DNA from: Flectobacillus sp. BAB-3569
Lineage (GTDB): Bacteria > Bacteroidota > Bacteroidia > Cytophagales > Spirosomataceae
Length of the DNA stretch: 64,000 nucleotides
Assembly (NCBI RefSeq): GCF_002270355.1
Contig: NZ_NJFZ01000007.1
Location: forward strand, 62,001 to 126,000
Reading direction: 5' to 3'
Of this stretch, positions 38,000-55,000 are shown piece after piece. The notes beneath the pieces were generated by a model. The model saw only the letters and a list, made by a program, of their open reading frames with translations, was not told the DNA's origin and searched no databases. Position numbers and translations under genes: made by a program. The first letter of the stretch is position 1. Every line of letters starts with the position of its first letter.

Positions 38000-38057
38000 G
38001 TCAAAACCATGGAAATCAAGCTTCTATCTTTATAAAGAGTAAATCATAAAAATTGTC

Positions 38058-38065
38058 TAACTTTG
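38058..38065 (+). promoter_or_regulatory. Possible -7 element of the Rpn-family gene
   Basis: TAACTTTG matches TAnnTTTG 27 bp before the ATG. No good -33 box is visible. If real, the inserted gene brings its own promoter. Confidence 0.35.
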
Positions 38066-38091
38066 GATTTTAGAACTACTCCTTTATAAAC

Positions 38092-39084
38092 ATGAAAGCA
38101 AAATATCTTAATCCATTTACGGACTTCGGGTTCAAGAAAATCTTTGGTGAAGAAGCCAGTAAGCCACAACTTATTGACTTCCTAAACTCCCTTTTGCCCG
38201 AAAGAGACCAAATCGTAGAACTCACCTTCAAAAACAATGAGCAATTAGGCTTTACACCCTACGACCGAAAAGCCATTTATGATATCTATTGTGAAAATCA
38301 AAATGGTGAAAAGTTTATCGTAGAACTACAAAAAGCCAAACAGAATTATTTTAGAGAAAGAACCATTTACTATTCCACTTTCCCGATTCGAGAACAAGCT
38401 GAAAAAGGTATTTGGAACTACAATCTCAAAGCGGTATACTGCATAGGCGTGCTAGATTTCACCTTTGATGATTACGAATCTGAACCTGAAAAATCAGAAG
38501 TCGTTCATACCATCAATCTCAAAAATCAGCATGGAAAGGTCTTCTACGACAAGTTGACTTATATCTATCTGGAAATGCCTAATTTCAAAAAAGAAGAACA
38601 TGAGTTGGCTACAAGACTAGATAAATGGTTGTATTTTATCAAAAACCTCGAAGACTTTCAAAACATTCCAGAGTTGTTTAAAGATGAAGTATTTACTCAC
38701 GCTTTTCAAGTCGCTGAGCTAGCCAAAATGGATAGGGAGGATTGGGAACGATACGAATACAGTCTTAAAGTATTTAGAGACAATAAAGCCACCTACGATT
38801 ATGCAGTCGAAACAGCCCATGAGGAAGGACTCTTAAAAGGTATGCAGGAAGGGTTGAAAGAGGGAATTCAAAAAGGAATTCAGGAGGGAATGGAAAAGGG
38901 TATCCAAGAAGGCATGGAGAAAGGAATTCAAGAGGGAATGGAAAAAGGCATCCAAGAAGGTATTTTAGAAGGAAAAAAAGAAGAACAAAGGCACATAGCT
39001 CGTCAAGCAAAGATTATGGGGTTAGGCATTGAAAATATCAAAATGCTCACTGGACTCTCAGAAGAAGAAATCAACAACCTGTAG
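38092..39084 (+). CDS. Rpn-family recombination-promoting nuclease / PD-(D/E)XK nuclease family transposase
   Basis: A 330-residue protein starting NPFTDFGFKKIFGEEASKP, the standard opening of this family. Nuclease residues D64 (AIYDIYCEN), E78 and Q80/K81 (IVELQK) make a PD-(D/E)XK site. E. coli RpnA relatives cut DNA and promote RecA-independent recombination, and many copies per genome behave like passengers. Residues about 245-294 are a run of GxxEGxxK octads (units such as EGMEKGIQ, three near-perfect copies) that form a charged helix of variable length. It sits between the SGNH-like and MBOAT genes, and its stop codon is inside a terminator hairpin. Confidence 0.92.
   Translation: MKAKYLNPFTDFGFKKIFGEEASKPQLIDFLNSLLPERDQIVELTFKNNEQLGFTPYDRKAIYDIYCENQNGEKFIVELQKAKQNYFRERTIYYSTFPIREQAEKGIWNYNLKAVYCIGVLDFTFDDYESEPEKSEVVHTINLKNQHGKVFYDKLTYIYLEMPNFKKEEHELATRLDKWLYFIKNLEDFQNIPELFKDEVFTHAFQVAELAKMDREDWERYEYSLKVFRDNKATYDYAVETAHEEGLLKGMQEGLKEGIQKGIQEGMEKGIQEGMEKGIQEGMEKGIQEGILEGKKEEQRHIARQAKIMGLGIENIKMLTGLSEEEINNL
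38824..38973 (+). repeat. In-frame 24-bp tandem repeats in the Rpn-family gene
   Basis: Units encoding (Q/K)EG(M/I)(E/Q)KGI, with three close copies of EGMEKGIQ and shorter relatives either side. DNA identity between the central copies is high (GGAATGGAAAAGGG-type units), so unequal recombination could change copy number without shifting the frame. Confidence 0.75.
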
Positions 39085-39108
39085 GGGGCTCCCCTACAGG
39101 TATTTTTT
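39077..39108 (+). terminator. Terminator hairpin at the Rpn stop codon, just before the MBOAT start
   Basis: ACCTGTAGGGG pairs perfectly with CCCCTACAGGT over a 3-nt loop and is followed by TATTTTTT. The stop codon (39082-39084) lies in the left arm. The MBOAT ATG is only 13 bp past the right arm, so read-through or a promoter inside the Rpn gene is needed to express it. Confidence 0.8.
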
Positions 39109-39113
39109 ACATT

Positions 39114-40589
39114 ATGCTTTTTAACTCAATAGAATTTTTAGTGTTTTTCCCAATCGTGACGATTGGCTATTTCTTGTTACCGCACAAATTCAGATGGTTG
39201 TGGCTTTTAGTAGCATCTTGCTATTTTTATATGGCATTTGTACCCATTTACATGGTTATTCTAGGCTTCACCATCATCGTTGACTACTACGCGGGTATAT
39301 TGATAGAACAAAGCGAGGGTAGTCGGCGAAAATGGTTTCTGGTAATGAGTCTGATTGCCAATATTGGGGTTTTAGCCGTTTTTAAATATTATAATTTTAT
39401 TAACGAAAATATCACTTGGTTATTAAAAGGTTTTGCGCTTCAAAATCCTATTCCTTATTTAGAAATACTTCTACCAATTGGTTTGTCATTTCATACTTTT
39501 CAGGCAATGAGTTACACCATAGAGGTTTACCGAGGCAATCAAAAAGCAGAAAGGCATTTTGGGATTTACTCGCTCTATGTGATGTTTTATCCACAACTGG
39601 TAGCTGGTCCCATAGAGCGTCCACAAAATGTACTGCATCAATTTCATGAGGAACATTATTTTGACTATAAAAATGTAACCAATGGACTCAAGCTAATGGC
39701 TTGGGGGATGTTTAAGAAAGTAGTCATTGCCGATAGATTAGCGGCTATGGTTGGACAAGTATATGACCATCCGCAAGGATATACAGGTTTGCCATTAATT
39801 ATTGCGACTTGCTTGTTTTCAATTCAAATATTCTGTGATTTCTCGGGTTACTCAGATATTGCTTTAGGCTCAGCACAGGTGATGGGATTTGAGTTGATGA
39901 AGAATTTTGACCGTCCTTATTTCTCAAAAACTATTTCAGAATTTTGGCGTCGCTGGCATATCTCACTATCTACTTGGTTTAGGGACTATTTGTACATCTC
40001 TCTAGGTGGGAACAGGGTCTCAAAATGGCGTCGAGAAGTGAACTTATTTATCGTTTTCCTAGTAAGTGGCATTTGGCATGGTGCTAGTTGGAACTTTGTT
40101 ATTTGGGGAGCTATTCATGGTTTTTATCTGATTTTCGCTAATCAAACAAAGGATATTCGAAATAAAATTATAAGTTCTCTTGGCTTAAACACTTGGCCTA
40201 TTTTCTACAATATTCTTCAGGTATTGACGATTTTTGGACTAACCAGTTTTGCTTGGATTTTTTTCCGTGCCAAAGACTTCCAAACGGCATCTTACATTGT
40301 GAGTCACTTATTTACTGATTTACCACATCAAATAAACCAATTGAGTAATGGTGAGTTTTTTGCCAAAAATGTAATGCTCAACAAAGGCGAACTCAATTTT
40401 GTAGTGGTCATCTTGGCACTTATTATGATGGAAAGCGTTCATTGGGCACAAAGAGGAGTTCATATTAGAGAAAGACTTAGCCAAAAACCACTTTGGTTTC
40501 GTTGGCTACTATATTACGGAATTATCTTCGCTACCTTATTCATGGGTATGTATCAGGCACCAGCGCAATTTATTTACTTTCAGTTTTAA
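39114..40589 (+). CDS. MBOAT family membrane-bound O-acyltransferase
   Basis: A 491-residue polytopic protein (about ten membrane segments) of the AlgI/DltB type. Motifs include LPIGLSFHTFQAMSY, VAGPIERPQN, FCDFSGYSDIA, FWRRWHISLSTWFRDYLY and the catalytic His in SGIWHGASWNFVIWG. It moves acyl groups across the inner membrane for transfer to exported polysaccharides, usually by an SGNH partner such as the product of 37028. Which glycan is modified cannot be told from the window. It begins directly after a terminator hairpin and ends at another. Confidence 0.93.
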   Translation: MLFNSIEFLVFFPIVTIGYFLLPHKFRWLWLLVASCYFYMAFVPIYMVILGFTIIVDYYAGILIEQSEGSRRKWFLVMSLIANIGVLAVFKYYNFINENITWLLKGFALQNPIPYLEILLPIGLSFHTFQAMSYTIEVYRGNQKAERHFGIYSLYVMFYPQLVAGPIERPQNVLHQFHEEHYFDYKNVTNGLKLMAWGMFKKVVIADRLAAMVGQVYDHPQGYTGLPLIIATCLFSIQIFCDFSGYSDIALGSAQVMGFELMKNFDRPYFSKTISEFWRRWHISLSTWFRDYLYISLGGNRVSKWRREVNLFIVFLVSGIWHGASWNFVIWGAIHGFYLIFANQTKDIRNKIISSLGLNTWPIFYNILQVLTIFGLTSFAWIFFRAKDFQTASYIVSHLFTDLPHQINQLSNGEFFAKNVMLNKGELNFVVVILALIMMESVHWAQRGVHIRERLSQKPLWFRWLLYYGIIFATLFMGMYQAPAQFIYFQF

Positions 40590-40591
40590 GT

Positions 40592-40629
40592 AAAACGGCA
40601 TAAAGACAAAATATTCTTTATGCCGTTTT
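40592..40629 (+). terminator. Terminator of the MBOAT gene
   Basis: AAAACGGCATAAAGA pairs perfectly with TCTTTATGCCGTTTT over an 8-nt loop and is followed by Ts. Confidence 0.88.
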
Positions 40630-40841
40630 TAATTTCTAAATACATTAAAAATGAAAAACCTTGTATAATTCATCATACTTTAGAGACATACGACACTATT
40701 CCTTCATTTTTAGGAAGATATTTTATAGCATTTTTGAATAAGCTATGTATTTTTTTCCGAAATTTGCACCTTCTTTTTAGACACGTAGGACTTGCTAAGA
40801 GGCTAAACACCTAATTATCAATATCCTAATTCCAAAGTATC

Positions 40842-42368
40842 ATGACCGAAAAAATATTAATCCTCGATTTTGGTTCTCAAGTAACGCAATTGATTGCACG
40901 TCGTGTGCGCGAGCTAAGCGTCTATTGCGAAATTCATCCATTCAATCATATCCCTGAAATTGGTGACGATGTAAAAGGGGTTATCTTCTCAGGTAGTCCT
41001 TGTTCTGTACGTGAAGAGGATTCTCCACGTGTGGATATGTCTCTTTTCAGAGGAAAATTACCTTTATTAGGTATTTGCTATGGGGCACAATTGCTAGCTC
41101 ATACTGCTGGTGGTGAGGTTTTTAACTCAGGACACCGTGAGTATGGTCGTGCTAAAATGACGAAAGTTCAATCATCTGAACTTTGGGAAGGCGTTTCGGA
41201 AGACTCTCAAGTATGGATGTCACACGGTGATACAATCATGTCTGTTCCTGAAAACTTTGAAATCATTGGTTCTACAGATTCAGTGAAAGTAGCAGCTTTT
41301 AAAATCAAAGACGAATCTACTTACGGCATTCAGTTCCACCCAGAGGTAACTCACTCTTTGGAAGGAAAAGATATGTTGAAAAACTTCGTAGTTGGCATTT
41401 GTGGTTGTAGCCAAGACTGGACTTCGGACTCATTTGTAGACTCGACTGTTGCTAATTTGAAAGAAAAATTAGGTAATGATAAAGTTGTTTTAGGACTTTC
41501 TGGAGGCGTTGATAGTTCGGTAGCTGCTGTATTGATTCATAAAGCTATTGGCAAAAACTTATACTGTATTTTTGTAGATAACGGATTACTTCGTAAAAAC
41601 GAATTTGAAGAGGTACTTGAATCTTACAAAAACTTAGGATTGAACGTAAAAGGTGTTGATGCAAAAGAACAATTCTATACAGCGTTAGCAGGCTTGTCAG
41701 ATCCTGAAGCAAAAAGAAAAGCTATTGGTAAAACATTTATTGATGTTTTTGACCAAGAAGCTCATTTAATTGAAGATGTAAAATGGCTAGGTCAAGGTAC
41801 TATTTATCCAGACGTAATTGAGTCTGTTTCGGTAAAAGGTCCTTCTGCTACCATCAAATCTCACCATAACGTAGGTGGCTTACCTGACTACATGAAGTTG
41901 AAGGTTGTTGAGCCACTTAATACTTTGTTCAAAGATGAAGTTCGTTTAGTAGGTAAAACTTTAGGAATTGATCCAAATATTTTGGGTCGTCACCCATTCC
42001 CAGGTCCAGGTTTGGCTATTCGTATTCTTGGAGATATTACTCCAGAAAAAGTAGATGTTCTTCAAAACGTAGATGCAATCTTTATCGGGAAATTGAAAGA
42101 AAAAGGATTGTATGACCAAGTTTGGCAAGCAGGTGCAATTTTGTTACCTATCCAATCGGTAGGTGTAATGGGCGATGAACGTACATACGAAAAGGTAGTT
42201 GCGCTTCGTGCTGTAACATCTGTAGATGGTATGACTGCTGACTGGTGTCACTTACCTTATGAATTTTTAGCAGAGGTATCTAACGACATTATTAACAAGG
42301 TAAAAGGTGTTAATCGTGTTGTATACGATATTTCTTCAAAACCACCAGCTACCATTGAGTGGGAATAA
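40842..42368 (+). CDS. guaA: GMP synthase (glutamine-hydrolysing)
   Basis: This 508-residue enzyme of purine synthesis turns XMP, glutamine and ATP into GMP. The class I glutaminase domain has Cys79 (GICYGAQ) and the QFHPEVTHS His/Glu. The ATP-pyrophosphatase domain has the P-loop [14 protein letters not shown] (about 217-230). The C-terminal dimerisation domain ([27 protein letters not shown]) completes it. Codon choice is like that of the sdh genes, consistent with housekeeping expression. It is followed by its own terminator. Confidence 0.97.
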
Positions 42369-42685
42369 GCATAAAAAGGAAAGTCCAGTCGAAAGGCTGG
42401 ACTTTTTTGTTTTTGTAGTTTTTCAGTAATCTTCTACTCAGTATTGAGTAGAAAAGCCTTCCGTAGACATAACAAACTCATTATCAATACAATACGAAAA
42501 CCTTTTTTTTCTAAACAATTTTATTTTCAAAATATAACTAAAAAGATATTTTTTGACCTATTTGATTTTTATCCTCCGAAAAATAAATTTCTATTCAGTT
42601 TTGCGTCCATTAAGTACTATTCATAGAATTTTTAGAATGATATTTGAGCGTGCTTTATTAAGTCTCATTTTAAAAATTCTCATGT
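42369..42685. other. Intergenic region between guaA and the OMP gene
   Basis: It contains the guaA terminator and about 270 bp of very AT-rich DNA leading to the outer-membrane protein gene. Short overlapping frames here lack coding character. A GATATTTG sequence near 42639 is one base off the -7 consensus. Confidence 0.4.
42380..42405 (+). terminator. Terminator of guaA
   Basis: AAAGTCCAGTC pairs with GGCTGGACTTT over a stable GAAA tetraloop (one G-T wobble), followed by TTTTGTTTTT. Confidence 0.9.
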
Positions 42686-43393
42686 ATGAAAAAGTTTTAC
42701 CTTTTAATCCTCTCTGCTCTTTTAATGGGCAATGCCGCAACGGCACAGAGTAGCAAGCCTACACTAGGCAACTCTATTAATATCCAATTTGGTAGTTTTG
42801 GTTTTGGAGCAGGTTTATCAAGACAACTAAAACCTGGCAAGTTTAATTTACGTATCTCGGCCGAATTTTTAGACAGTAAAAATTTCGTAAAAAATCCTAT
42901 TAAAGTAAACCTAGGAGACGGAGCATCCGATGTTTTGATTAATCCAACTGTAACTTCTATGCTTTTGGGAGCAAAGGTAGATTGGCATCCATTCAAGAAA
43001 AGTTCTTTTAAGTTAGTTGGTGGAGTATCTTACGGTAGTGGAGACTTCTATGTAGATGTAGAGCCAGCTCAGAAAACAGGGCGTTTTAAATTGGCAAAAG
43101 ATGTAGAGTTGGATGCGGAAGAATTTGGCACGGCTCGTTTGATTGTTTCGGGTAATAAAGTACGTCCTTATCTAGGACTTGGTTTTGGTAGAGCTATTCC
43201 TAAGCACAAACTAGGTTTTTCGGTTGACTTGGGAACATATTACACTGGCTCTCCTAAACTAGCAGTACCTCGTACAGGCATGATTGAGTCGATTTTGACA
43301 GACCAGAATATCTCTGATATTGAGAAAAACATCAAAAACTACTCATTTGTACCAAACATCACTTTCAGCATTACCTACAAGCTGAATAAATAA
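42686..43393 (+). CDS. Outer-membrane beta-barrel protein, cassette 1
   Basis: A 235-residue protein with a signal peptide (about 1-20, ending ATAQ). Beta strands typical of a small porin-like barrel follow: FGSFGFGAGLSRQL, FNLRISAEFLD, SFKLVGGVSYGSG, PYLGLGFGRAIPKHKLGFSV, ending ITFSITYKLNK. It is clearly homologous to the protein at 47406 (shared LGLGFGRA(I/V)PK, LGTYY and a late Glu-rich region). It is followed after 39 bp by a lipoprotein gene that also has a homologue beside the second OMP. The two probably work together at the outer membrane; function unknown. Confidence 0.82.
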   Translation: MKKFYLLILSALLMGNAATAQSSKPTLGNSINIQFGSFGFGAGLSRQLKPGKFNLRISAEFLDSKNFVKNPIKVNLGDGASDVLINPTVTSMLLGAKVDWHPFKKSSFKLVGGVSYGSGDFYVDVEPAQKTGRFKLAKDVELDAEEFGTARLIVSGNKVRPYLGLGFGRAIPKHKLGFSVDLGTYYTGSPKLAVPRTGMIESILTDQNISDIEKNIKNYSFVPNITFSITYKLNK

Positions 43394-43432
43394 TTAAACT
43401 ACAAGGTAAAATTTAATCAAAAACGAATACTT

Positions 43433-45061
43433 ATGAAAAAGCTTATATATATTTTAGGTGCTTTTATGCTAGCTGGTGCTTGGTATGCCTGTACGCCCCC
43501 TCTCGACGGTGTAACGCTTAAACTTCCAGTAGCACTTGCTAATTCAAATGTTGTTGTTCAATTCCAACCAGACAATATTAGCGCGGGCGACTTACCTAGC
43601 AATATCAAAATCTCACTTGGTGGTGCCGATACAGCCAAGGTTGTAAATAGTGTTGGTGGAAAAACATTGGCGGTAAAACAAAATGTTTTGACCCTGGCTG
43701 CCAAATCAAACAGTGTTCCTAGCGCAAACGCTCCAATCAAATTTTTTATCATAGCAGAGGCTGACGGATACTTGCGTAGCATTACTCCTGTAGAAATTAC
43801 TAGTACAAAAGACCAGAACTTAGTTGTTAAATTAACCAAAATTGCAGCGCCTCCTGCAGGTGTATCTGTGGTTCAACAACCAGCTACCGTTCCTGCATCA
43901 GGAACAACTTCAACCCCTATTGCTGCAGCTACTTCGACTACTTCAACTGTACAAGAAAAGGCAACTGTAAATATCCCATCGGGTGTTACGATGAAAGATG
44001 GCGATGGTCAAACTGTGGGTGGTAACGTGAATGTGGTAATTACTAAAACTGATGCCACTAAGACACCTGTTAACATTGACCTTGGTGATGTGAGTAAGGT
44101 TTTGGATAAAAATAACCAACCTATCCCTTCGTTTACTTTTAAACCAGTGGTAGGTATGGACATTGAGATTTCGAATGATAAAAACCAAAAAGTAAAATCA
44201 TTCTCAGGACAAATTGATGTTCAAACGGAATTTCCAACTGGAGCTACTGACCCAACTACAGGCAAGCCTTTAGTAGCTGGCGATTTGATTGCGATTGCAT
44301 CTTATGACGAAGATACAAAAGTCTTTAAGTATGAAGGGAGTGTAAAATTAACAACCAATGCTAATGGCAAATTAGAGGCAAAAGGAACTATCAACCACTT
44401 AACTTCTGTATTTTTTGCGTCATTCAATGGTATTACCGTTGCAGGAAACTCAAATAGTCCAGCGGATATTGCAGCTGCAAAGGCAGCGTTTGGCGATAAT
44501 GTTACTCCTGCTATGATTAATGCTATTAAAACTTATACATTGGCATTTGGGGGTTCAGTTGGACAATATGCTAGCGAAACGTTTATTGTAGATGTAAACG
44601 ACGGCGTAGTTGTGTTTGAAACGACTGATAGATTAAATAACTCTATCATTACGCCAAATGAAATCACTAAAATTGTGGTCAAAAACTCATTAGGTGAAGT
44701 AATCACAACTGTCAATAACCCATATCCAAGTGGTCAGTCAGCAACAATCAATATGCCAGCACCACCAAACTTTATCGAGTTACAAGCTAACTTAAAGTGT
44801 AAAGACGCAAACAAAACGTCAAATGCTGACAATATTCATATGTATGCGAAAAAGCCTGGTGATGGATATTTCTATGTTGGTAAAGCGACTAGAAATGCTT
44901 CAAATATCATTACTGCCACTTCTACTATTTTGAAAAGAGGTGGTGTATATGACTTTATGTTTGATGTGGGTGGTATTCTGTTTTACTACGATAATCAAAC
45001 TGTAACCTCGGGTAGCGTTCACTCTATCAATAGCTCTATGCCAGACGTTCTGTGTAAATAG
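43433..45061 (+). CDS. Large surface lipoprotein, cassette 1
   Basis: A 542-residue protein with lipobox AWYAC (Cys20). The N-terminal half has two beta-sandwich-like stretches, then EKATVNIPSGVTMKDGDGQ and a domain containing GLIAIASYDEDTKVFKYEG-type sequence (actual DLIAIASYDEDTKVFKYEG). That segment has the look of the extracellular domains of FAM171/CILP-like proteins. The C-terminal half is a separate, less conserved beta region with several Cys. It is paired with the OMP gene just upstream and homologous to the lipoprotein at 45693 in the N-terminal half only. A perfect 52-bp palindromic terminator follows. Confidence 0.8.
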   Translation: MKKLIYILGAFMLAGAWYACTPPLDGVTLKLPVALANSNVVVQFQPDNISAGDLPSNIKISLGGADTAKVVNSVGGKTLAVKQNVLTLAAKSNSVPSANAPIKFFIIAEADGYLRSITPVEITSTKDQNLVVKLTKIAAPPAGVSVVQQPATVPASGTTSTPIAAATSTTSTVQEKATVNIPSGVTMKDGDGQTVGGNVNVVITKTDATKTPVNIDLGDVSKVLDKNNQPIPSFTFKPVVGMDIEISNDKNQKVKSFSGQIDVQTEFPTGATDPTTGKPLVAGDLIAIASYDEDTKVFKYEGSVKLTTNANGKLEAKGTINHLTSVFFASFNGITVAGNSNSPADIAAAKAAFGDNVTPAMINAIKTYTLAFGGSVGQYASETFIVDVNDGVVVFETTDRLNNSIITPNEITKIVVKNSLGEVITTVNNPYPSGQSATINMPAPPNFIELQANLKCKDANKTSNADNIHMYAKKPGDGYFYVGKATRNASNIITATSTILKRGGVYDFMFDVGGILFYYDNQTVTSGSVHSINSSMPDVLCK

Positions 45062-45692
45062 GGTTTGGTTAAATTAGATTTGTTTGACTAACAAAAGCTA
45101 TCAACTAAAAACGGTATCGAATTAATTCGATACCGTTTTTAGTTGATAGGTATTCAGCCATACCCAATAGGTTAAACGTTTGAATATATTTCTTAAGAAA
45201 TCAGATAAGCATTTTACCAAGTGTACATCACTAACGACCGAAAGCTCAAAACAAACTATAACCTTTTGATTATGAGAAAGTTTCACCAAAACACTTAATC
45301 TTCTCCTCTGACCTTTAAACAGTTTAAACGTCAGTCCAAGACAAAGTCTTAAACTCGGAACTTCAATTTTGTCTAATAATCAGACTATTAACTTATAACA
45401 TATTCGCACAAAACTAATTTGAAAGACTAATTTTTGAGAAAATTTTCAATAGCTTCACTATGAAAAACTCTACGGTAAACTATATACGATGCAATTATTT
45501 TTAAATGGTCTTACAATTGTTCATAAAAAACTCATGTACTATGTCTAAGAAAAAACACAATACATGAGTTTGATTACTTCATCTGAAATCTAAACCATTT
45601 CTATAAATTTCATTTTAAGACAACACTAAGTATAGTACTAATAGGATAACTACAATTAGAATTTAGTTAGACAACCTCTTCGAATAGCAAAC
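45062..45692. other. Junction between the two convergent cassettes
   Basis: About 630 bp between the tails of the two lipoprotein genes. Apart from the palindromic terminator at 45098-45149, I see only AT-rich DNA with no gene. A small convergent-strand transcript cannot be excluded. Confidence 0.45.
45098..45149 (+). terminator. Perfect 52-bp palindromic terminator after lipoprotein 1
   Basis: CTATCAACTAAAAACGGTAT (45098-45117) opens an exact palindrome: the 26-bp left half, ending CGAATT, is followed directly by its reverse complement. With A5 and T5 tracts inside the arms it can end transcription in either direction. Confidence 0.85.
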
Positions 45693-47366
45693 TTAGTTAC
45701 AGGTTTCAGACTCATATGTTGCAAATACAGATACGATATCAGTTACTGGATTGTAGCTCGTTGTTCCTGTTATGCCTTTCCCATTTGCAGTGATAACAGA
45801 AGATGTCTTGTTGAATGTTACATTGCCTTCGTAAGTTTTATTATCGTAGTAGGTAAAGAAATAATATGTTTTTCCTTCCGTTATATTGAAATTAGCCTTC
45901 CCACTTACAGCGTAGGAATAGTTCCACGTATATGAATCTAAACTAATCAAATATAACCATGTTGAAGGCTTAATATTGAGGCTTTTATTAGTACATTTTG
46001 CAGTAAAATCAACCTCTACATTCAAATAGCTTGGTAGGCTTTTCACATTAAGAGAAATAGGAACTGATGAAACAGAGCATGGGTCAAATTGTGAGGTAGC
46101 CCCCAGAAAAGTATCCCCTTGACGCGAATAGACTTCTACTTGAAGTTTAAAATTTGCCGGCGGATTTGCATTAAAAAGACCGTTTGAACTATTACCATTG
46201 GTGACATCAAAATCATACATAGTTTTTACATAATTTTTCACACCAGCCTCACTAATACAATACACTTTTGCATAAAAATCATTGCTATTAGCATAACGTG
46301 TAACGTTAGAGCTTACATTGAATGTAAGAGGCTCCCACGAACGGCAGCTAGAATAAAACCAATCCAAATTCCAATAAGATAAATGTGGAGCTTTGAATTG
46401 TGCTACCAATTCGCCTTTGTTATTTCGTATCACATTTGCAACCCCCTCTTCTTTCCAAGCTCCAGTATCGCTATCATAACTCCAAGTCGGGATAGAATCT
46501 CCCTCCTTCATTAACTGACCTGTATTGGGATTTTTCAAATCGGGATTTAATCCTACAGTAACTTCAATTGGTTTTGAGAAACTTTTTACATCTTTTCCAG
46601 CAGCTTCCATTTCGACAGCAACAAACCCTCCCGTTATAAAAGAGCCATCAACTGATGAGCCACTATTCATAGCCACATTTTCTGCCGCAAATCCACCAGG
46701 AAAGCTTTCTATTGATTCTTGTGTTTCGGTGGTATATTGCACTACTGTTACTGCCACCTCTTTAGAATTAATAATCGTACCTGATGCATCTTTTATCTCT
46801 GTGCCTGGAGTAATTGTAATACTAGCTGTTTCAGGCTTATCAGGAGTAGAAGGTACTTCTACACTCTTCCCTTTACTTAAGTCTACAGTTGCTTTTTCTG
46901 TTGCTGCTCCAACAGGTGGAGTTGCAATATTTGTAAGAGGAACTCTGAAGTTCAGAGCATCTTTAGGGTCAGTAATAATAATTGTTTTGCTTGTAGATAC
47001 ATAACCCTCCCCAGAGACGGCCACAGTAAATTCAATAGGAGCTTTAGTTGTCGGTGCAACATTTTTATTTAAAACTAAACTTAATACATTTCCTGATGGG
47101 GTATAGTTCTTTTTTCCTGCATCACTCAGTACTAAATCTTTACCTGGACCCGAAATAGTTACCTTGAGATTCTGAGGACGACCCTTTACTTCCGGGTTTG
47201 CATCTACAAACTCAATTAATACTGGAGCCTTGTAAATATCGGTATTTACGGTAAGTTCTAAATCTTCAAATGGGTTTATTTTTTGACAGGCATTTAGTGC
47301 GCCAAAGATCAATATTAGGACTCCAGAAAGGCGCATAAAAAGTGTTATGTTTGGTAATTTATTCAT
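45693..47366 (-). CDS. Large surface lipoprotein, cassette 2
   Basis: A 557-residue protein with lipobox (LIFGALNAC, Cys27). It shares with the lipoprotein at 43433: a leading P-V-(L/V)-(I/V)-x-F strand, a NxL(K/S)xxISGxG stretch, APIEFTVAVSGEGY versus APIKFFIIAEADGY, an EKATV block, then TIPTWSYDSDTGAWKEEG versus LIAIASYDEDTKVFKYEG. The C-terminal ~200 residues have diverged. Serine/asparagine-rich, so likely exposed on the cell surface. It follows the OMP gene at 47406 with a 39-bp gap, the same spacing as in cassette 1. Function unknown. Confidence 0.8.
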   Translation of the reverse strand: MNKLPNITLFMRLSGVLILIFGALNACQKINPFEDLELTVNTDIYKAPVLIEFVDANPEVKGRPQNLKVTISGPGKDLVLSDAGKKNYTPSGNVLSLVLNKNVAPTTKAPIEFTVAVSGEGYVSTSKTIIITDPKDALNFRVPLTNIATPPVGAATEKATVDLSKGKSVEVPSTPDKPETASITITPGTEIKDASGTIINSKEVAVTVVQYTTETQESIESFPGGFAAENVAMNSGSSVDGSFITGGFVAVEMEAAGKDVKSFSKPIEVTVGLNPDLKNPNTGQLMKEGDSIPTWSYDSDTGAWKEEGVANVIRNNKGELVAQFKAPHLSYWNLDWFYSSCRSWEPLTFNVSSNVTRYANSNDFYAKVYCISEAGVKNYVKTMYDFDVTNGNSSNGLFNANPPANFKLQVEVYSRQGDTFLGATSQFDPCSVSSVPISLNVKSLPSYLNVEVDFTAKCTNKSLNIKPSTWLYLISLDSYTWNYSYAVSGKANFNITEGKTYYFFTYYDNKTYEGNVTFNKTSSVITANGKGITGTTSYNPVTDIVSVFATYESETCN

Positions 47367-47405
47367 AGCCGTATCGTATTAAAATGTATGTGTTCGATTT
47401 GTTTT

Positions 47406-48098
47406 TTAGTTCAGTCTTACTGCCAACCTAAGGTTGAACATAGGCCAATACCTCCAATCTTTCATATTGTTTTGAATTTTACTTTCTTGCTCACTCATGC
47501 TACTTAGTCTTTCAGTACCAGTTAAAGATACTTTGGGTTCAGACAAATAATATGTACCTAATTCAAACCCAAATCCAACTCTTTTTTTAGGGACGGCTCT
47601 CCCAAAGCCTAATCCGATAAATCTGGCTACACCTCCATTGTAACTCAAATCAAAGTTAAATTCTCCGATTTCCTTAGGAGTAAATTCGGTTTCACCTATT
47701 TTGTAATTCTCTGTGGGTGAAGCCACAACCAATACACGTCCTTTCTGAATATAACTAAGTCCCAAAATAAACTTAAATGAGCTTTTTGACGAAGGGTAAA
47801 GCTCCACCCCTAACCCTAGTGCGTTCATATCCAAGTTGCCATTTAGTTGTATGTCTTCATCTGAAACTGTTAACTTGTTGGACATGGTGTAATTTAAAAA
47901 TGTGTTCATCAATCTTACTGAAATGTTGGGCGTAAACCGAGCCGAAACGTCAAATCCGGGTGTTGTACCTCCTAAAAGCCCTATACCGAACTTAATCGAG
48001 TTAGTATTTGATTTAGGTGCAACAGGCTTGATAAGTTGAGAAAAACCTCTAAAACTTATCGAAGCTACTAATAAAATTAAAAGTAGTTTTTTCATCAT
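47406..48098 (-). CDS. Outer-membrane beta-barrel protein, cassette 2
   Basis: A 230-residue protein with a signal peptide (about 1-21, ending GFSQ) and small-barrel strand pattern. It is a homologue of the OMP at 42686: RFIGLGFGRAVPKKRVGFGF against PYLGLGFGRAIPKHKLGFSV, and the shared GTYY strand. The ATG at 48098 or 48095 may be used. Same order and spacing with its lipoprotein as in cassette 1, but on the opposite strand. Confidence 0.82.
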   Translation of the reverse strand: MMKKLLLILLVASISFRGFSQLIKPVAPKSNTNSIKFGIGLLGGTTPGFDVSARFTPNISVRLMNTFLNYTMSNKLTVSDEDIQLNGNLDMNALGLGVELYPSSKSSFKFILGLSYIQKGRVLVVASPTENYKIGETEFTPKEIGEFNFDLSYNGGVARFIGLGFGRAVPKKRVGFGFELGTYYLSEPKVSLTGTERLSSMSEQESKIQNNMKDWRYWPMFNLRLAVRLN

Positions 48099-48511
48099 GG
48101 TAACTTCATTTTAATAGTTCAATAATCATATGTAGTATATTGTTTTTAATCTTGAGATTCAATGCTAAATATCAATTTTTGGGCAAAACACATAACCACT
48201 AGTTTGAGACAAAACCTCTCTAACTAGTTAAAAGTGAATATTTTCAGACGGTTGATTTATTTATAAGAATAATAGCTAATCATCAAAAAGACTACCTCGA
48301 ATAGTATATCCTTTTTCTTGATGTAAAGCTATAAGAAGAACAGGTTCGATTTGTTAGTAGATTACTTTATCTTGTTTTTTTTTATTTTATGGTACTGCCA
48401 ACACAGGATACACCATTTTATAAAGCAAAACACAACAAAAACAAACACTCTAAATAGAAGAAACGAAGGTTGACAATGTATTGAATACAAGGAAACATTA
48501 TACTAACATAA
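48099..48511. other. Intergenic region before the IS element
   Basis: AT-rich DNA upstream of cassette 2 (minus strand) and to the left of the IS4-family element. It should hold the cassette 2 promoter, but I found no TAnnTTTG match on the minus strand. No ORF seen. Confidence 0.4.
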
Positions 48512-48564
48512 GAAATTTAGTACTCTACCCTACTAAAAAATGGGACAAATTAGGTAAAAAGAAA

Positions 48565-48613
48565 GGGAAGTAAGAGTTTTGTAGTTACCAAGCTCCAAAA
48601 CATCCCACTTCCC
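48565..48613 (+). promoter_or_regulatory. Hairpin abutting the transposase start codon
   Basis: GGGAAGT (48565-48571) pairs with ACTTCCC (48607-48613), and inside it GTTTTG (48576-48581) pairs with CAAAAC (48596-48601). The ATG begins at the next base. Such stem-loops in IS elements limit transposase translation from transcripts that read in from outside. Confidence 0.6.
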
Positions 48614-49799
48614 ATGAACCAACGGCTCGAAAGCGAAATTACCAGTGTTTTATCAAAATTTCCAATTGTTAAGAATTTATCACGCAAAAAATTCATTTGC
48701 TCATTTATTTTAGGATTAATAAAAAGTAGAAATCGGGGCGGCCCGTGCCATACAATTTTGCGATGTAGCTCAACATCTAAATGTCAAGGCTAAATTAAGC
48801 TCCAATGAAGTTCGAATACAGGATTTTTTCAGGGAGGTTAATATTGATTATTTTTATGTAGCTTTGCTGTTGTTGCAGTTCTTACCGACTAATAAAAAGT
48901 TACGTTTATGCCTTGATAGAACAGAATGGGATTTTGGCTCCTGTCAGATAAATATTTTGATGGTAGTAGTAGGTTGTGGAGATTATCAGCTTCCTTTATA
49001 TTGGGAAATGTTGGATAATAAGAGTGGAAATTCATCTACCCGAGACCGTAAAGCTATCGTAGAAATGTGTGTAAATTTGATTGGCAAAGAACGAATAGGA
49101 TACATAGTTGGAGACCGTGAGTTTATCGGCCATTCATGGATTAAATATCTGAAAGACAATGGTATAAATTTTATAATGCGCTTGCCAAAACATCATTTAT
49201 TACAAAAACCAGATGTTAGTGTGTTCAAAATAGAGTGCTTGAATTTAAAAATTAACAAAGCTGTGATATTAAGAGATTGTCTAGTAGATGGTGTAGTGGC
49301 CAATGTTTGGGTCAAGGCCTTGCAAAACGGTGATTTTTTATATTTATTGGGTACAGTAAATGTAGAATTTATGGGGCAGCTATATGCTAAAAGATGGACT
49401 ATAGAGACTTGTTTTCAAGGATTGAAAGGTAGAGGTTTTAACTTAGAAAAAACGCATTTAAAATGTTTGAAAAAGATTAAAAAACTCATTGCCTTAGTCG
49501 CTATATCATATGCCGTTTGTATAAGTATGGGAATTTACTTTCACGCTAAAGTACAAAAAATCAAAAAGAAAAAGCATGGTTATAAATCCAATAGTTTTCT
49601 TAGAAAGGGTATAAATATGATTCAAGAATTATTCCGGCAAGCAATACTGACAGATACAGCTATTGAGAATAGAATATTCAGCTTTTTAAGATGTATAAAA
49701 ATGCAAATGTCTCATTATCAAAAAAAATATGCCTACTTAAAAAAAGCTGGGTATAGTAGAAATTTAGCTAATATAATGCTGAGTATTAATGCAACATAA
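48614..49799 (+). pseudogene. IS4-family transposase disrupted by a 16-bp insertion
   Basis: The first 40 codons from ATG 48614 (MNQRLESEITSVLSKF to LGLIKSRN) read normally, then 16 extra bases (48734-48749) shift the frame. After them the protein resumes with IQFCDVAQHLNVKAKL in the new frame and runs to 49799. DDE residues are present: RTEWDFG (first Asp), VGDREFIG (second Asp) and the YREK signature YAKRWTIETCFQGLK. Without the 16 bases the protein would be 389 residues, the family norm. A shorter frame beginning at TTG 48864 still carries the catalytic core but lacks the DNA-binding N-terminus, so the element is probably inactive. Confidence 0.88.
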
Positions 49800-49921
49800 A
49801 TTTGCATTAACATATTGTGGTCTATGAGCTATAGGTACTAGGTTAAAATGTACTAATAATTTCGTAGGAAATACTTTGATTCTTTTTAATTGTAGCATAA
49901 GGTAGTCCCATGAAAATAAGT

Positions 49922-50583
49922 TTATATTTTACCAGTGATTCTTTTCAAAATATCTTCAATTTCTAACGCTCGCATTTCAGAATAAACACTGGTATGGAAA
50001 CGATCGAGTTTGGCTAGAACATGAAAAAGCAATTCCCTTTCATCTGATTTAAGCACTTGGAATAGTACTGCATCTACCTTGATCATCTCGGGCAAACAAC
50101 TCATTATCCAACTCACACCCGATGATGTTATTTTTACTTGCTTTGAGCGCGCGTCGTCTGGATCATTAAATTCTTCTACAAGGTTATTCTTTATAAGACG
50201 GTTAATTACATTGGTGCCTGAGGTAAACTCAGAAATATTTCGATGAATTAATTCGCTTTTTCGCATAGCACCCATGAAATGCAAATCTGACAAGTACGCG
50301 AAATCTTCAATATTATCGACTGGTAGATTTTGCATTGTTTTTTTACATAAAAATGAAGGTACTTCTGAACTCGAACAAGTGCTTTACCTAGGCCGTTGGA
50401 TGGCTTCACTACTCTACCTCCTGTATGATGTATATATTCTTCATCGACTTGCTTAAATCTTGCTAATTGTTGTTTTTGTAAGTAATCCTGACAAAATTCT
50501 TCCAAGTTACCTGTTGGATTCTCGTTCTCAAACACTTCCCAAGCCTTTACTAATTCAACGACTGGATTAATTGCCTTCTTCAT
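49922..50583 (-). pseudogene. MarR-family transcriptional regulator, frameshifted
   Basis: The N-terminal frame (ATG at 50583: KKAINPVVELVKAWEVFE...) runs to KALVRVQKYLHFYVKK and then goes out of frame. The winged-helix part continues in another frame (MQNLPVDNIEDFAYLSDLHF to 49922) with MRKSELIHRNISEFTSGTNVINRLIK and the DPDDARSKQVKIT wing. Adding one A to the 7-A run (plus-strand T7 at 50338-50344) joins them as KKTMQNLPVD and gives 220 residues, the usual length of this longer MarR type in Bacteroidota. A dyad and -7 box lie just upstream (50649-50691), suggesting autoregulation. Confidence 0.87.
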
Positions 50584-50758: not shown

Positions 50759-51958
50759 CTAAACTTCCTCATCATTCACACCTGCAATAATGATTCTGAA
50801 TGTAGTGCCTTTGCCCACTTCTGAATATTTAACGAAAAGCTTACCACTATGATAATTTTCGATAATCCTTTTGGCAAGTGTCAAACCTAAGCCCCATCCT
50901 CGCTTTTTGGTACTGAAACCTGCATTAAAAACCTTACTCAAATTCTGTTTACTGATACCTTTTCCTGTGTCCGAAATATCAATGATAATTTGATTGTGTT
51001 TGCCATTTTCCATCGTCACTTTCAACGCTCCCACACCCGTCATGGCGTCTACCGCATTTTTACAAATATTTTCAATAACCCATTCAAACAAATACTTATT
51101 AATTTTGACCGTTGGATGTGTCAAATGATTTTCAATCGTCAATGATACTTTAGATGAAATTCTTCGTTTGAGATAGCTCAAAAATACCTCAACGGTCTCA
51201 GCTACATTTTCTTCTTTGAGCACAGGTATCGAACCTATGTTAGAAAAACGTGTCGTGATTACATCGAGTCGCTGAACATCCTTCTCTAATTCCTTTACAA
51301 TTTCTTGATCGAAAGTAGGATCTGATTTAAAAAACTCCACCCAAGCTGTTAATGAAGATAGTGGCGTGCCCAACTGGTGTGCTGTTTCTTTAGCCAAACC
51401 TACCCAAACTCTATTTTGCTCAGAGCGGCGTGAAGCATCAAAAAACAGATACGCTGCCAAGCCAAAAATCAACACTACAATCAACTGAAATACAGGATAA
51501 TACCTAAGCATATTTAGCAAATGAGAATTTCCATAATATACATATTCCTTATGAAAATCCATATCAAGCTCAATCGGTGGGTTATCATCACGCATGATTT
51601 CATTCAATTTATCACGCAAAAAAGCTTGTTGCTCTTTTGAATTCAATCCCGGTGGAATCTGGATACTTTCTGAAGCGGTCAAATATCCTGAACCGTCTTT
51701 CAAGATGACAGGAATCGTAATATTCTCATTAGATTTCTTGATTTTTTCGAAAAAGAAATTCACATCTTTATCCAAATCATTGGTCATCATAAACTTAAAC
51801 GACTCAGCATAAAGTTGAATTTGATCTTTCTCTCGTTCTTCCAATTTCGAAACAATTCGGTCAGTGAAGTACAAGGAAAATGCCCCGATAATAACGCAAA
51901 CGAATAGAAAAGCGATTTTCCACCATGTGTTTTTACTATAAATATCGACTGTTAACAT
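50759..51958 (-). CDS. Sensor histidine kinase (membrane-bound, HisKA-HATPase)
   Basis: A 399-residue kinase with membrane helices at about 10-30 and 155-172 around a periplasmic domain. The phosphoacceptor is in GLAKETAHQLGTPLSSL, an H-box variant (AHQLGTPL) frequent in Bacteroidota. The ATPase domain has NICKNAVDAM, DTGKGIS, GWGLGLTLAKRI and GKGTTFRI. The ATG at 51958 is used: a longer frame to 52060 would overlap the end of the C25 peptidase gene and add a non-membrane tail. No response regulator is adjacent. It lies 82 bp after the PorU2-like gene on the same strand and may share its transcript. Confidence 0.92.
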   Translation of the reverse strand: MLTVDIYSKNTWWKIAFLFVCVIIGAFSLYFTDRIVSKLEEREKDQIQLYAESFKFMMTNDLDKDVNFFFEKIKKSNENITIPVILKDGSGYLTASESIQIPPGLNSKEQQAFLRDKLNEIMRDDNPPIELDMDFHKEYVYYGNSHLLNMLRYYPVFQLIVVLIFGLAAYLFFDASRRSEQNRVWVGLAKETAHQLGTPLSSLTAWVEFFKSDPTFDQEIVKELEKDVQRLDVITTRFSNIGSIPVLKEENVAETVEVFLSYLKRRISSKVSLTIENHLTHPTVKINKYLFEWVIENICKNAVDAMTGVGALKVTMENGKHNQIIIDISDTGKGISKQNLSKVFNAGFSTKKRGWGLGLTLAKRIIENYHSGKLFVKYSEVGKGTTFRIIIAGVNDEEV

Positions 51959-52040
51959 AGAATAATTATTGAGCGAATTAGCGAATGGGTGATTTAGTGA
52001 TTTTGACAAAAGTATTTGAAGAGGAATAGGAAAATCATTT

Positions 52041-55000
52041 TCACTTTCTCTCCAATACAATTTTGCCAGTAAAGGTATCTGCTATCGACAACGAATCCTT
52101 TGGTTCTTTATTTTGTAATGTTAGCTTGTAAAAATACAGCGCATTAGGCAAAAAATTACCTTCTTGATTTCGTCCATCCCAAAATATTTCTTTTTCGGTC
52201 GCATTCACTGTCTGTTGAACCTCATAAACCTTTTTCCCGGAGACATCAAAAATCTGACAAGTTACCCAGTAATCATGTTCTGGTAAATTTTCAATACTCC
52301 ATCTTGTCCACGTATGCAAAGGATTTGGAAAGACCTTTAATTGAACAGGAGTAACTTTCTCATCAATTACCATCTGTATTTGATATGCTTTAGTCGACAC
52401 CTTTGCTCCTACTCTATCGCTAGCATTAATGGCTATCCAAACGGTGTCTTTAAGCCAATCTGTAGCCTGATAGGTTAACGAAAGCTTTCCTTTTTCCTCT
52501 GTTATAGCGGTAATGTTAGAATTATTTCCAGCAACCCAAGCACAAGTTTGGCAATGCTTTATCGAAATTTCTACATTTTCTTTTCTCAAAAAAACAAAGC
52601 GATTATTGTCCCATAACTGTATTTCCAATGTTGGATTTGGACTAAAATGCTCGAAGTTTTGGGCTATTCTCCCATTCACTTGCACAAGCATGGTAGGTGC
52701 GATATTATCTTGTTTGACGTTTACCAAAACTTGGGTTGAATTATTACTAAAATTGGCTTCATGTTTACGAGATGGATTTACCACAAAACGTAAAACATAG
52801 TCGCCAGCCTGCTCAAATGCTTTTGAAAAAACAGGTAGTGCTATTGAATCATGCGCCACAAAAGACGAAAGAGGCTCTTGTTGACTCTCCAAAACTTCTC
52901 CATTCTGAATAATTTGCCAATGCAAAAAAGTGCTATCGCTAAAAGGGGTATCGGAGGTATTATAGACATACCGTCTGATATTCAATACTTGTCCTATCTC
53001 TACTTCGTGGGTGTCTTTTAATGCCTCAATGGCTAAATCTGCATACGGTTTACCCAATACTCCCCAACGACGCAGTTGGCTGGCTTGCTTTACTTGTTTT
53101 GCTCCAAATTTTACTCGAATAGGAGTCAACAACCTTTGTGTAGAAAGGGGTTGAAAAGTTAGGTTTTCTTGTAATGCATAGCTTTCATCATTGATATTCA
53201 ACTCATAGTTGCTTGGTTTTTCTAAAGATTGAAAATCTGTAAAAACTTGTTTGGCATCCTCCAAAGCGCCCATTTGCGGTGGTGTCATTTCCCAATTTTG
53301 AGTTTCAGGCAATAAATACAGCGTATCACTAATGGCGGAGATAGCACTTTTGCCAAACTTTTCGATGGCATTTTGCTTACCTTTTTGTACTGCTAACAAA
53401 AAAGGTGTTCCTAGCGGTAAGGCTTTGATTTTAGCGATTGAAAAGCCCAAATTTTGTAAAGATGTCCATATCTCCCCAGACCATTTTTGAGTACTTACGC
53501 GCCCATGTGGCCAAAGAATAAGCCAATCACCAACTTTCAGTTGCTGTAAATAAGTCAACAAAGGATTTTCACCTAATAATAGGTTTTCATTCAAATTTTG
53601 AATCCAATATGGGGAATTTCCACAGCTCAGTTGTGGCAAAATAAGATAGGGCTTCAATTGCGCGTCGAGCGTTATGGCGTTGAGGCTACTCCAAGGATAG
53701 CACAAGCCGTTACCCATCCATTGTTGATCATTTACTTTAACCCAACCCAGGTAATTACTTTGAGTAATATCTGCGCCAGGTACGTACAAAGCTATTTTAA
53801 GCGTATCAGGCTGTAGTTTCCAAGTACTTTTATCCCATGTAATTTCTGAAGTTTTTATGGCCTGAAAATGCGCTGATGTTCGCTGTATCCAGCCTAAAAG
53901 ACTATTGGGAATATAGGTAAATGTTCCGTTCAACAGTACACTGTCTGAAGTAATCATCCGCCAATAATAGGTAGTTGTATCCTTGGCAATACTTTTAAAC
54001 AAATAGCGAAAAACACCTTGTTTAGTAATCGTTTTTTGAAAAATAATAGACTTAAAATCTGAGTTATCAGCAAGCTGTAATTGCACAGGAGCAAGCAGAG
54101 TCTTATTTCCTTCCAACCAAATCTCGGGACTTGACACTATCGCCCAATTGCTGGGATAATACAATGCTAAAGATTTTTTCAGGTGGAAATCTCGAAGTTC
54201 GATATCATTATTCTTCGTATTTACTTCTTTTAAAACACCTTCATCGTCAAGCGATAATCTCAGATTGAGAGTATCGTTTTGCCAAGCAGAATTTAATGGA
54301 ATTTTCAAAGAAAGAACGTCAGTGTTAACCAAAGTTTTTTCATATAACTGTTGAAAAATATCTTGTTGGTTGACAGATAAATGAATCGAAAATGGAACTT
54401 GGTTTGCTTTTCCATAATTAACGATTGAAACATTGATCCTGAGTGAGTCCTGTTGAAAATCTATACTCAGGCTATTTTTTACAAAAGCGATATCTGGCAA
54501 CGCTATTGCTTTGAACAGCCGAATGGCAGGATCACCTTGCAGGGTAAATTGTTGCAAGGTTGTTTTGAGATAAGGGTCAGTAGCCTGATGTTTGAGTACC
54601 TGCGCATGAGCTTCTCCTAAAGTTTGAGATAACTCTCCTTGAAATAACTGCTGATAAAAGCTTTTGGAAAAAGCATACAATGAATTCGGATAGGCCAAAT
54701 GAGTATGAGCCATAAAAGCAATAGCTCCACGGTCGGGAGACAATAACCAATCGGTACTTAAGGCCTTTTTTTCTGTAAAAAAATCGCCTGCATCACAACC
54801 ATTGACCAATACAAACGGATATTTTCCTTGATTTTGATACCCCAAATCAGGATTGCTGACAAAGCCTATATCAAGGTCGAGTTGTCCAATAGCCGAATGG
54901 CCAAACAACGTAATCATACCAATGCCTTGATTCACTTCTTCCGATACATTACGGACTTCCACATAGGCATCGGTCTGTTTGCCAATGGTCCGAACCTCCA

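What the first reader, a model, noticed from the sequence alone, without database searches (positions are those of the whole stretch)
42686..48098. Duplicated OMP-lipoprotein cassette in tail-to-tail orientation
Two operons, each a ~230-residue beta-barrel followed after 39 bp by a ~550-residue lipoprotein, face each other across a 630-bp spacer. The barrels share LGLGFGRAxPK and GTYY strands. The lipoproteins share the N-terminal half, including a (T/L)I(P/A)xxSYDxDTxxxKxEG motif, but their C-terminal halves differ. I know of no named system with this layout. A barrel plus a surface lipoprotein with a variable outer domain suggests a paired export/display or binding device whose specificity has diverged after duplication.
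Basis: partly seen in the sequence, partly recalled or inferred. Interest (0 to 1): 0.7.

Follow-up and report, generated by a model that had tools for sequence, protein, structure and literature searches.

The report
Barrel plus possibly self-cleaving surface lipoprotein
Two gene pairs, each a small outer-membrane barrel with a large lipoprotein, belong to an apparently unnamed pair family found in several branches of one bacterial phylum; the lipoprotein contains a domain shaped like the self-cutting domain of animal adhesion receptors, so it may cut itself and let its outer head come off.

Summary
Both cassettes (CarO-like 8-strand barrel, 39 bp, ~550-aa lipoprotein) are present and convergent. 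The pair is conserved beyond this genome: of 121 family genomes 56 have the lipoprotein and 54 the barrel, all 54 being among the 56; 76 of 102 lipoprotein places have the barrel directly upstream. In a 296-genome phylum sample, all 28 genomes whose lipoprotein I judged to bear the N-terminal domain also have the barrel. The cassettes are not a local duplication: A sits in conserved synteny, while B (25% identical) belongs to another old subfamily and lies in a 4.9-kb segment absent there from two close relatives. The C-terminal halves are homologous (C458, C556), with one Ig-like domain (D3) often changing fastest. The HL(S/T) self-cleavage triad sits at the expected turn in both window proteins; 70 of 123 homologues keep H-x-[S/T]. 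Best explanation: a barrel-held surface receptor or adhesin, probably self-cleaving, with D3-D4 as the releasable head. Surface exposure, complex formation and cleavage are untested.

The parts
42686..43393 (+). Barrel A (235 aa), CarO-like outer-membrane beta-barrel
   Evidence: profile of 25 barrels vs CarO 4rlb E 2.6e-17; 97% identical to G002, 91% to G001
43433..45061 (+). Lipoprotein A (542 aa), same four-domain plan as B by alignment
   Evidence: 95% identical to G002, 92% to G001
43850..44428 (+). GAIN/ZU5/FAM171-like domain (D2) of lipoprotein A
   Evidence: aligned with D2 of B; A itself has no Pfam FAM171 hit at E<=1
44396..44404 (+). HLT triad (H322-L323-T324) of lipoprotein A at the GPS-like position
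   Evidence: alignment; place in the fold inferred from the model of B
45093..45154 (.). 31-nt inverted repeat, 94% complementary, probable terminator after lipoprotein A
45693..47366 (-). Lipoprotein B (557 aa): lipobox Cys C27, D1, D2, D3, D4
   Evidence: AF2 model m60319c71d3c8, mean pLDDT 76
46929..47285 (-). D1 of lipoprotein B (residues 28-146), candidate barrel-docking domain
   Evidence: D1-only short lipoproteins of ~145 aa in L006, L063, L066; strongest barrel co-divergence
46347..46919 (-). D2 of lipoprotein B (residues 150-340), GAIN/ZU5/FAM171-like
46377..46385 (-). HLS triad (H328-L329-S330) in the turn between strands 320-328 and 331-338
46047..46334 (-). D3 (residues 345-440), often the fastest-evolving domain, bracketed by C341 and C430
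45696..46031 (-). D4 (residues 446-557), terminal Ig/CnaB-like domain with C458 and C556
47406..48098 (-). Barrel B (230 aa), CarO-like 8-strand barrel
45062..49941 (.). Segment (spacer, cassette B, transposase remnant) absent from this site in G001 and G002
   Evidence: blastn

Best explanation
Each cassette encodes a two-protein outer-membrane complex. The first protein is a CarO-type 8-strand beta-barrel. The second is a lipoprotein of four beta domains: D1 next to the lipid, then D2, D3 and D4. D1 docks on the barrel and holds the lipoprotein at the outer membrane, most likely facing outward. D2 is a FAM171/GAIN/ZU5-like domain that, in both window copies, carries the HL(S/T) triad at the turn where GAIN and ZU5 domains cut themselves. 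I propose that it cuts itself there, leaving two fragments held by beta-sheet pairing, so that D3-D4 can be pulled off or exchanged under load or on ligand binding. D3, often the fastest-changing domain, does the binding; D4 caps the end. Shown by tools: gene pairing, domain plan, fold matches, triad position, cysteine pairs of the kind disulfides give, D3 variability, and that B is not a local copy of A. Inferred: surface exposure, barrel-D1 contact, self-cleavage, head release, and the ligand (unknown).
Against: No Pfam GPS or ZU5 hit among the 25 families listed (of 29) for 31 members at E<=5, though HMMER's filters lose most matches above about 0.1. 53 of 123 homologues lack H-x-[S/T], so cleavage cannot be needed family-wide. 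The joint loss of H and S/T is alignment-sensitive once descent is allowed for: an earlier set that still held 7 truncated duplicates gave 8 contrasts, 3.8 concordant, median p 0.125; even now p ranges 0.016-0.125. FAM171A1/A2, the nearest relatives by sequence, lack the triad. The D2 profile also matches a flagellar protein (3c12) at E 0.0014. The lipoprotein model was made from only 5 sequences and its coordinates could not be inspected. D1's lead in co-divergence may partly reflect better alignment; family-only data also give D4 a partial of 0.29. No complex could be modelled here. In the C2-type G001-G002 pair D3 is not the fastest domain, in one subfamily-A pair D3 dN is below D1's, and D3 is the lowest of the four in only 159 of 309 pairs with D1 identity of 50% or more. 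The residues after the lipid Cys fit none of the surface-export signals I recall.
Confidence: 0.5

Rival explanations
1. Same barrel-held surface lipoprotein, but D2 is only a structural beta-sandwich as in FAM171 and never cuts; the triad is a folding feature of the last turn.
For: FAM171 proteins keep the domain without the triad; 53 of 123 homologues lack H-x-[S/T]; no Pfam GPS/ZU5 hit seen.
Against: H and S/T are more often kept or lost together than apart (70 and 35 against 11 and 7); HFS or HFT, which I recall as the ZU5-type form, stands in for HL(S/T) in 10 members; the triad is found in the window's family and in 16 of 35 rows from outside it, the Ignavibacterium MAG among them.
Confidence: 0.4
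2. The pair makes an S-layer or cell-coat subunit and its membrane anchor, like Bt1926/Bt1927, rather than a receptor.
For: Same layout, 8-strand barrel plus surface lipoprotein (PMC12578637, passages); pilin- and adhesin-like D3/D4 fold matches.
Against: At 557 aa the lipoprotein is a little over half of the 100 kDa given for Bt1927; several divergent copies per genome and a fast-changing middle domain fit recognition better; no homology test to Bt1926/1927 was possible.
Confidence: 0.25
3. The barrel is a small-molecule channel (the NCBIfam CarO model is named an ornithine uptake porin) and the lipoprotein is its substrate-capturing cap.
For: CarO fold and sequence relation.
Against: Only 29 and 43 bits against a CarO cut-off of 300; no transporter or enzyme gene recurs beside the cassettes family-wide in the 26 loci clustered, though a sugar-transferase-like gene follows the C2-type in 5 loci.
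Confidence: 0.1
4. The barrel is a dedicated exporter or flippase of the lipoprotein.
For: Tight gene pairing.
Against: 8-strand model; genomes with more lipoproteins than barrels, such as G004; barrel without a detected lipoprotein in 26 genomes of one family.
Confidence: 0.1

Closest known systems
Bt1926/Bt1927 of Bacteroides thetaiotaomicron and other surface-lipoprotein-barrel complexes of Bacteroidota
   Same: Small predicted 8-strand barrel encoded with a large surface lipoprotein; barrel thought to be the anchor or secretion partner (PMC12578637, passages)
   Different: Bt1927 is a 100-kDa phase-variable S-layer protein; homology to it was not tested here
GAIN domains of adhesion GPCRs and the ZU5 superfamily (PIDD, UNC5, Nup98)
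   Same: Fold of D2 and HL(S/T) or HF(S/T) between the last two strands
   Different: No Pfam GPS/ZU5 hit seen; anchor on the N-terminal side, so the C-terminal part would be the loose one; cleavage not shown
Bacterial ZU5 surface proteins and polymorphic toxins (Zhang et al. 2012, PMC3482391, passages)
   Same: ZU5-type self-processing domain proposed in bacterial surface proteins
   Different: Those described in the passages are large proteins with RHS repeats, toxin, adhesion or enzyme domains; here a 4-domain lipoprotein with a dedicated barrel and no toxin domain seen
FAM171 ectodomain (PF10577; PDB 9y6n, 9y63)
   Same: Sequence homology over D2 (Pfam E 8.2e-11 for lipoprotein B; FAM171A2 E 1.2e-6)
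   Different: Animal protein (membrane topology recalled, not looked up); triad absent (QLG in the alignments)
CarO of Acinetobacter (NF038067; PDB 4fuv, 4rl9, 4rlb)
   Different: Far below the CarO cut-off; paired with a lipoprotein

Membership tests
Surface-lipoprotein-barrel complexes of Bacteroidota | Barrel and lipoprotein encoded together | tested here: met
   76 of 102 places in the family sample; 30 of the 35 phylum-sample places kept
Surface-lipoprotein-barrel complexes of Bacteroidota | Lipobox cysteine | tested here: met
   C27 in all 122 of 123 that are not gapped there
Surface-lipoprotein-barrel complexes of Bacteroidota | Surface exposure and physical complex | not testable with these tools
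   needs protease shaving and co-purification
Bt1926/Bt1927 S-layer pair | Sequence homology to Bt1926 and Bt1927 | not tested
   sequences not to hand; only passages read
GAIN/ZU5 autoproteolytic superfamily | Fold | tested here: met
GAIN/ZU5 autoproteolytic superfamily | H-[LF]-[ST] triad between the last two strands | tested here: met
   HLT in A, HLS in B; 67 of 123 homologues with L/F in the middle
GAIN/ZU5 autoproteolytic superfamily | Match to the Pfam GPS or ZU5 model | tested here: not met
   not among the 25 families listed (of 29) for 31 members at E<=5, with filters on
GAIN/ZU5 autoproteolytic superfamily | Self-cleavage | not testable with these tools
   needs SDS-PAGE and mass spectrometry
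FAM171 (PF10577) | Gathering score 31.2 | tested here: met
   lipoprotein B 42.1 bits; lipoprotein A no hit at E<=1; 17 of 31 members match at E<=0.01
CarO (NF038067) | Curated cut-off of 300 bits | tested here: not met
   29.4 bits (A) and 43.1 bits (B)
CarO (NF038067) | CarO barrel fold | tested here: met

The most novel reading that the evidence does not exclude
A bacterial counterpart of the adhesion-receptor ectodomain with the anchor at the other end: a barrel-docked lipoprotein whose GAIN/ZU5-like domain cuts itself at HL|S/T, so that a variable recognition head (D3-D4) is held only non-covalently and can be shed by pull or ligand. Its D2 would link animal FAM171 (triad lost) to the GAIN/ZU5 self-cleaving domains.
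Probability: 0.35. Interest if true: 0.8.

Novelty: new variant of a known kind. Interest (0 to 1): 0.6.

Why it matters
If right, it gives an apparently unnamed barrel-lipoprotein pair family a domain plan, a likely partner interface (D1-barrel) and a one-residue test (S330A). It would put a GAIN-type self-cleaving switch on bacterial surfaces, easy to express and study, and offer bacterial relatives of FAM171 and of the GAIN/ZU5 fold for questions about where those animal domains came from.

Tried and rejected
Local tandem duplication: rejected. A is 95% and 92% identical to its counterparts in G002 and G001, while the nearest B copies (G001, G003) are 57-59%. In G001 and G002 only 66-67 bp separate the regulator gene from the end of lipoprotein A, where the window has 4.9 kb. 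Whether this was gain here or loss there is not settled; B's low identity and a transposase remnant beside it favour gain.

Plasmid or virus carriage: no match to lipoprotein B in plasmids or viral contigs. A conserved third gene: none family-wide in the 26 loci clustered; only the C2-type subfamily keeps a sugar-transferase-like gene (named by recall) next to it in 5 loci. The neighbours in the 20 further loci were looked at, not clustered. Pfam GPS/ZU5 membership by sequence: no hit seen. Positive selection on D3: dN/dS up to 0.40, never above 1. The structure listing for D1 was thin (one search tests mainly 114-556), so its fold is not claimed. The 2014 GAIN/ZU5/Nup98 paper was not held. 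Searches for FAM171 with Bacteroidetes or with GAIN domain found nothing relevant.

A count that I mended: searches used a set of 130 homologues in which 7 were truncated copies of genes already present. Searches removed them (123 left), realigned and recounted; the report uses those numbers, except the per-pair dN (no duplicate involved) and the profile A5 (drawn from the older set, no duplicate in it).

Rows dropped before counts. For the phylum count I kept 35 lipoprotein places in 25 genomes that I judged whole or D1-bearing (two, G164 C2:183684 and G255, match only from profile position 155 and 83 on) and left out the matches of the 19 genomes hit only in other parts, one such match in G239, and G000, G007 and G034. 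One search scored at most 4 candidates per genome and at most 9, so their counts are lower bounds. For the homologue set, ORFs under 400 aa were dropped; it includes three larger proteins (L109-L111) that share mainly D2. A5 holds 36 of the 72 triad-bearing rows of the older set, chosen under 55% identity, so its invariant His is by selection.

Full report
What is there. One search confirms the four genes at the stated places: barrel A 42686-43393 and lipoprotein A 43433-45061 on the plus strand, lipoprotein B 45693-47366 and barrel B 47406-48098 on the minus strand. Both internal gaps are 39 bp and the two 3' ends face each other across 631 bp. The barrels are 31% identical over 205 aa and the lipoproteins 25% over 530 aa. 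Downstream of lipoprotein A lies a 31-nt near-perfect inverted repeat, a probable terminator.

How many and where. The window's genome holds four such pairs: two here, one on contig C2 and one on C34, and four matches to the D2 profile. The C34 pair is followed by a short lipoprotein that is D1 alone (about 145 aa), as are its counterparts in G001 and G002. Named relatives are Arcicella rosea (55% and 51%) and an Ignavibacterium MAG (29%), so the window probably comes from a relative of Arcicella. Lipoprotein B has no match in viral contigs or plasmids.

Pairing. With profiles of 31 lipoproteins (A1) and 25 barrels (A2), 121 genomes of the same family gave 56 with the lipoprotein and 54 with the barrel. 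All 54 are among the 56; the two exceptions hold a partial match (G011) and a partial match with a stop inside (G369). Of 102 lipoprotein places, 76 have the barrel within 500 bp upstream on the same strand. The 26 others include three D1-only short genes, second lipoproteins in genomes that have another pair, contig ends and fragments. In some genomes of genera g18 and g20 the genes are unlinked yet both kept; in G021 and G359 they lie about 170-200 kb apart on one contig. Since neighbours are inherited together, the unlinked cases are the better sign of a functional bond. In a sample of 296 genomes of the phylum (lower bounds, as few candidates per genome were scored), 47 match the lipoprotein profile: 28 with a lipoprotein that I judged to bear D1, all 28 with the barrel; and 19 with matches to other parts only, mainly D2, none with the barrel. 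In the six f35 loci examined no lipoprotein gene was found nearby. So the barrel can live alone, while the D1-bearing lipoprotein in this sample was not seen without it.

Not a local duplication. A tree of 25 barrels and a tree of 31 lipoproteins show the same subfamilies: A-type, B-type, C2-type and C34-type. Three of them occur in G000, G001, G002 and G003, and B-type in G000, G001 and G003, so they predate the split of these genus members, and A and B are old paralogues. Nucleotide alignment to G002 runs at 90% from 38001 to 45061 and resumes at 49942 (84%); the 4.9 kb between, with cassette B and a transposase remnant, is missing there, and also in G001. Lipoprotein A is 95% and 92% identical to G002 and G001, B only 57-59% to its nearest counterparts. 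B therefore most likely arrived separately; loss in the relatives is not excluded.

The lipoprotein. The AF2 model of B (5 sequences, mean pLDDT 76) shows beta domains that I divide as D1 (28-146), D2 (150-340), D3 (345-440) and D4 (446-557). Across 123 non-redundant homologues, C27 and G73 are kept in all 122 not gapped there, C458 in 121 of 123 and C556 in 117 of 119. Counted within three columns, C341 and C430 are both present in 102, both absent in 16 and single in 5; C458 and C556 both in 117, single in 4, neither in 2. This is what disulfides closing D3 and D4 would give.

Which part touches the barrel, and which part varies. Over 99 adjacent pairs with domains realigned, the divergence of D1 follows that of the barrel (rank correlation 0.62; partial 0.42, bootstrap 0.35-0.51), against partial values of 0.08, 0.05 and 0.19 for D2, D3 and D4; in the 70 family-only pairs D1 has 0.40 and D4 0.29. 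Differences in alignment quality may add to this. D3 is often the most variable: between G000 and G002, C34-type D1/D2/D3/D4 are 95/93/71/92% identical. D3 dN is 3.4-12.5 times that of the other domains in the C34-type and mostly 1.5-3 times in subfamily A, with dN/dS at most 0.40. Against this, in one of three subfamily-A pairs D3 dN is below D1's, in the C2-type G001-G002 pair D3 is not the fastest, and D3 is the lowest of the four in 159 of 309 pairs with D1 identity of 50% or more. In genus g31 the D3 part is repeated in open frames of 920-948 aa.

Mechanism. I favour a barrel-docked surface receptor or adhesin with a probable self-cut in D2 and a variable head. Pairing, domain plan, fold and triad are shown by tools; exposure, docking, cleavage and release are inferred. 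The nearest layout I found in print is Bt1926/Bt1927 (PMC12578637, passages), whose barrel is a putative anchor of an S-layer lipoprotein. A purely structural D2 is the main rival (0.4).

Verdict. A real, widely conserved and apparently unnamed barrel-lipoprotein family; a new variant of the surface-lipoprotein-barrel kind, with an unexpected FAM171/GAIN/ZU5-like domain. Interest 0.6; if self-cleavage holds, 0.8.

Noticed in passing
window 48540-49830: Transposase remnant (DDE_Tnp_1, 311-aa open part at 48864-49799) with a broken reading frame beside cassette B; no second copy in the genome, only a 38-base match elsewhere.
   Followed up: partly
window 49922-50583: Regulator-like gene (by recall) split into two overlapping frames, whereas G001 and G002 have one 217-aa gene at this place.
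   Followed up: partly
window 52041-56621 and 50759-52060: Peptidase C25 gene (1526 aa, PorU-like by recall) overlapping a histidine-kinase-like gene; both stay next to cassette A in G001, G002 and G003.
   Followed up: no
window 20-2863: Protein with a CHU_C type IX secretion signal, so the organism probably has that secretion system.
   Followed up: no
L006:5642-6079, L063:9079-9516, L066:9291-9725: D1-only short lipoprotein just downstream of the C34-type pair.
   Followed up: partly
L005:7048-8544 and counterparts in L064, L067, L069, L080: Sugar-transferase-like gene (by recall) directly after the C2-type cassette, also in another genus; in G000 it is only 51-55% identical to the same-genus copies, like the cassette beside it.
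   Followed up: partly
L122-L127: CarO-like barrel without any lipoprotein gene found nearby in six genomes of family f35.
   Followed up: partly
L109, L110, L111: Larger proteins of other families with the D2-like domain and HFS/HFT at the same place; no barrel match in their three genomes.
   Followed up: no
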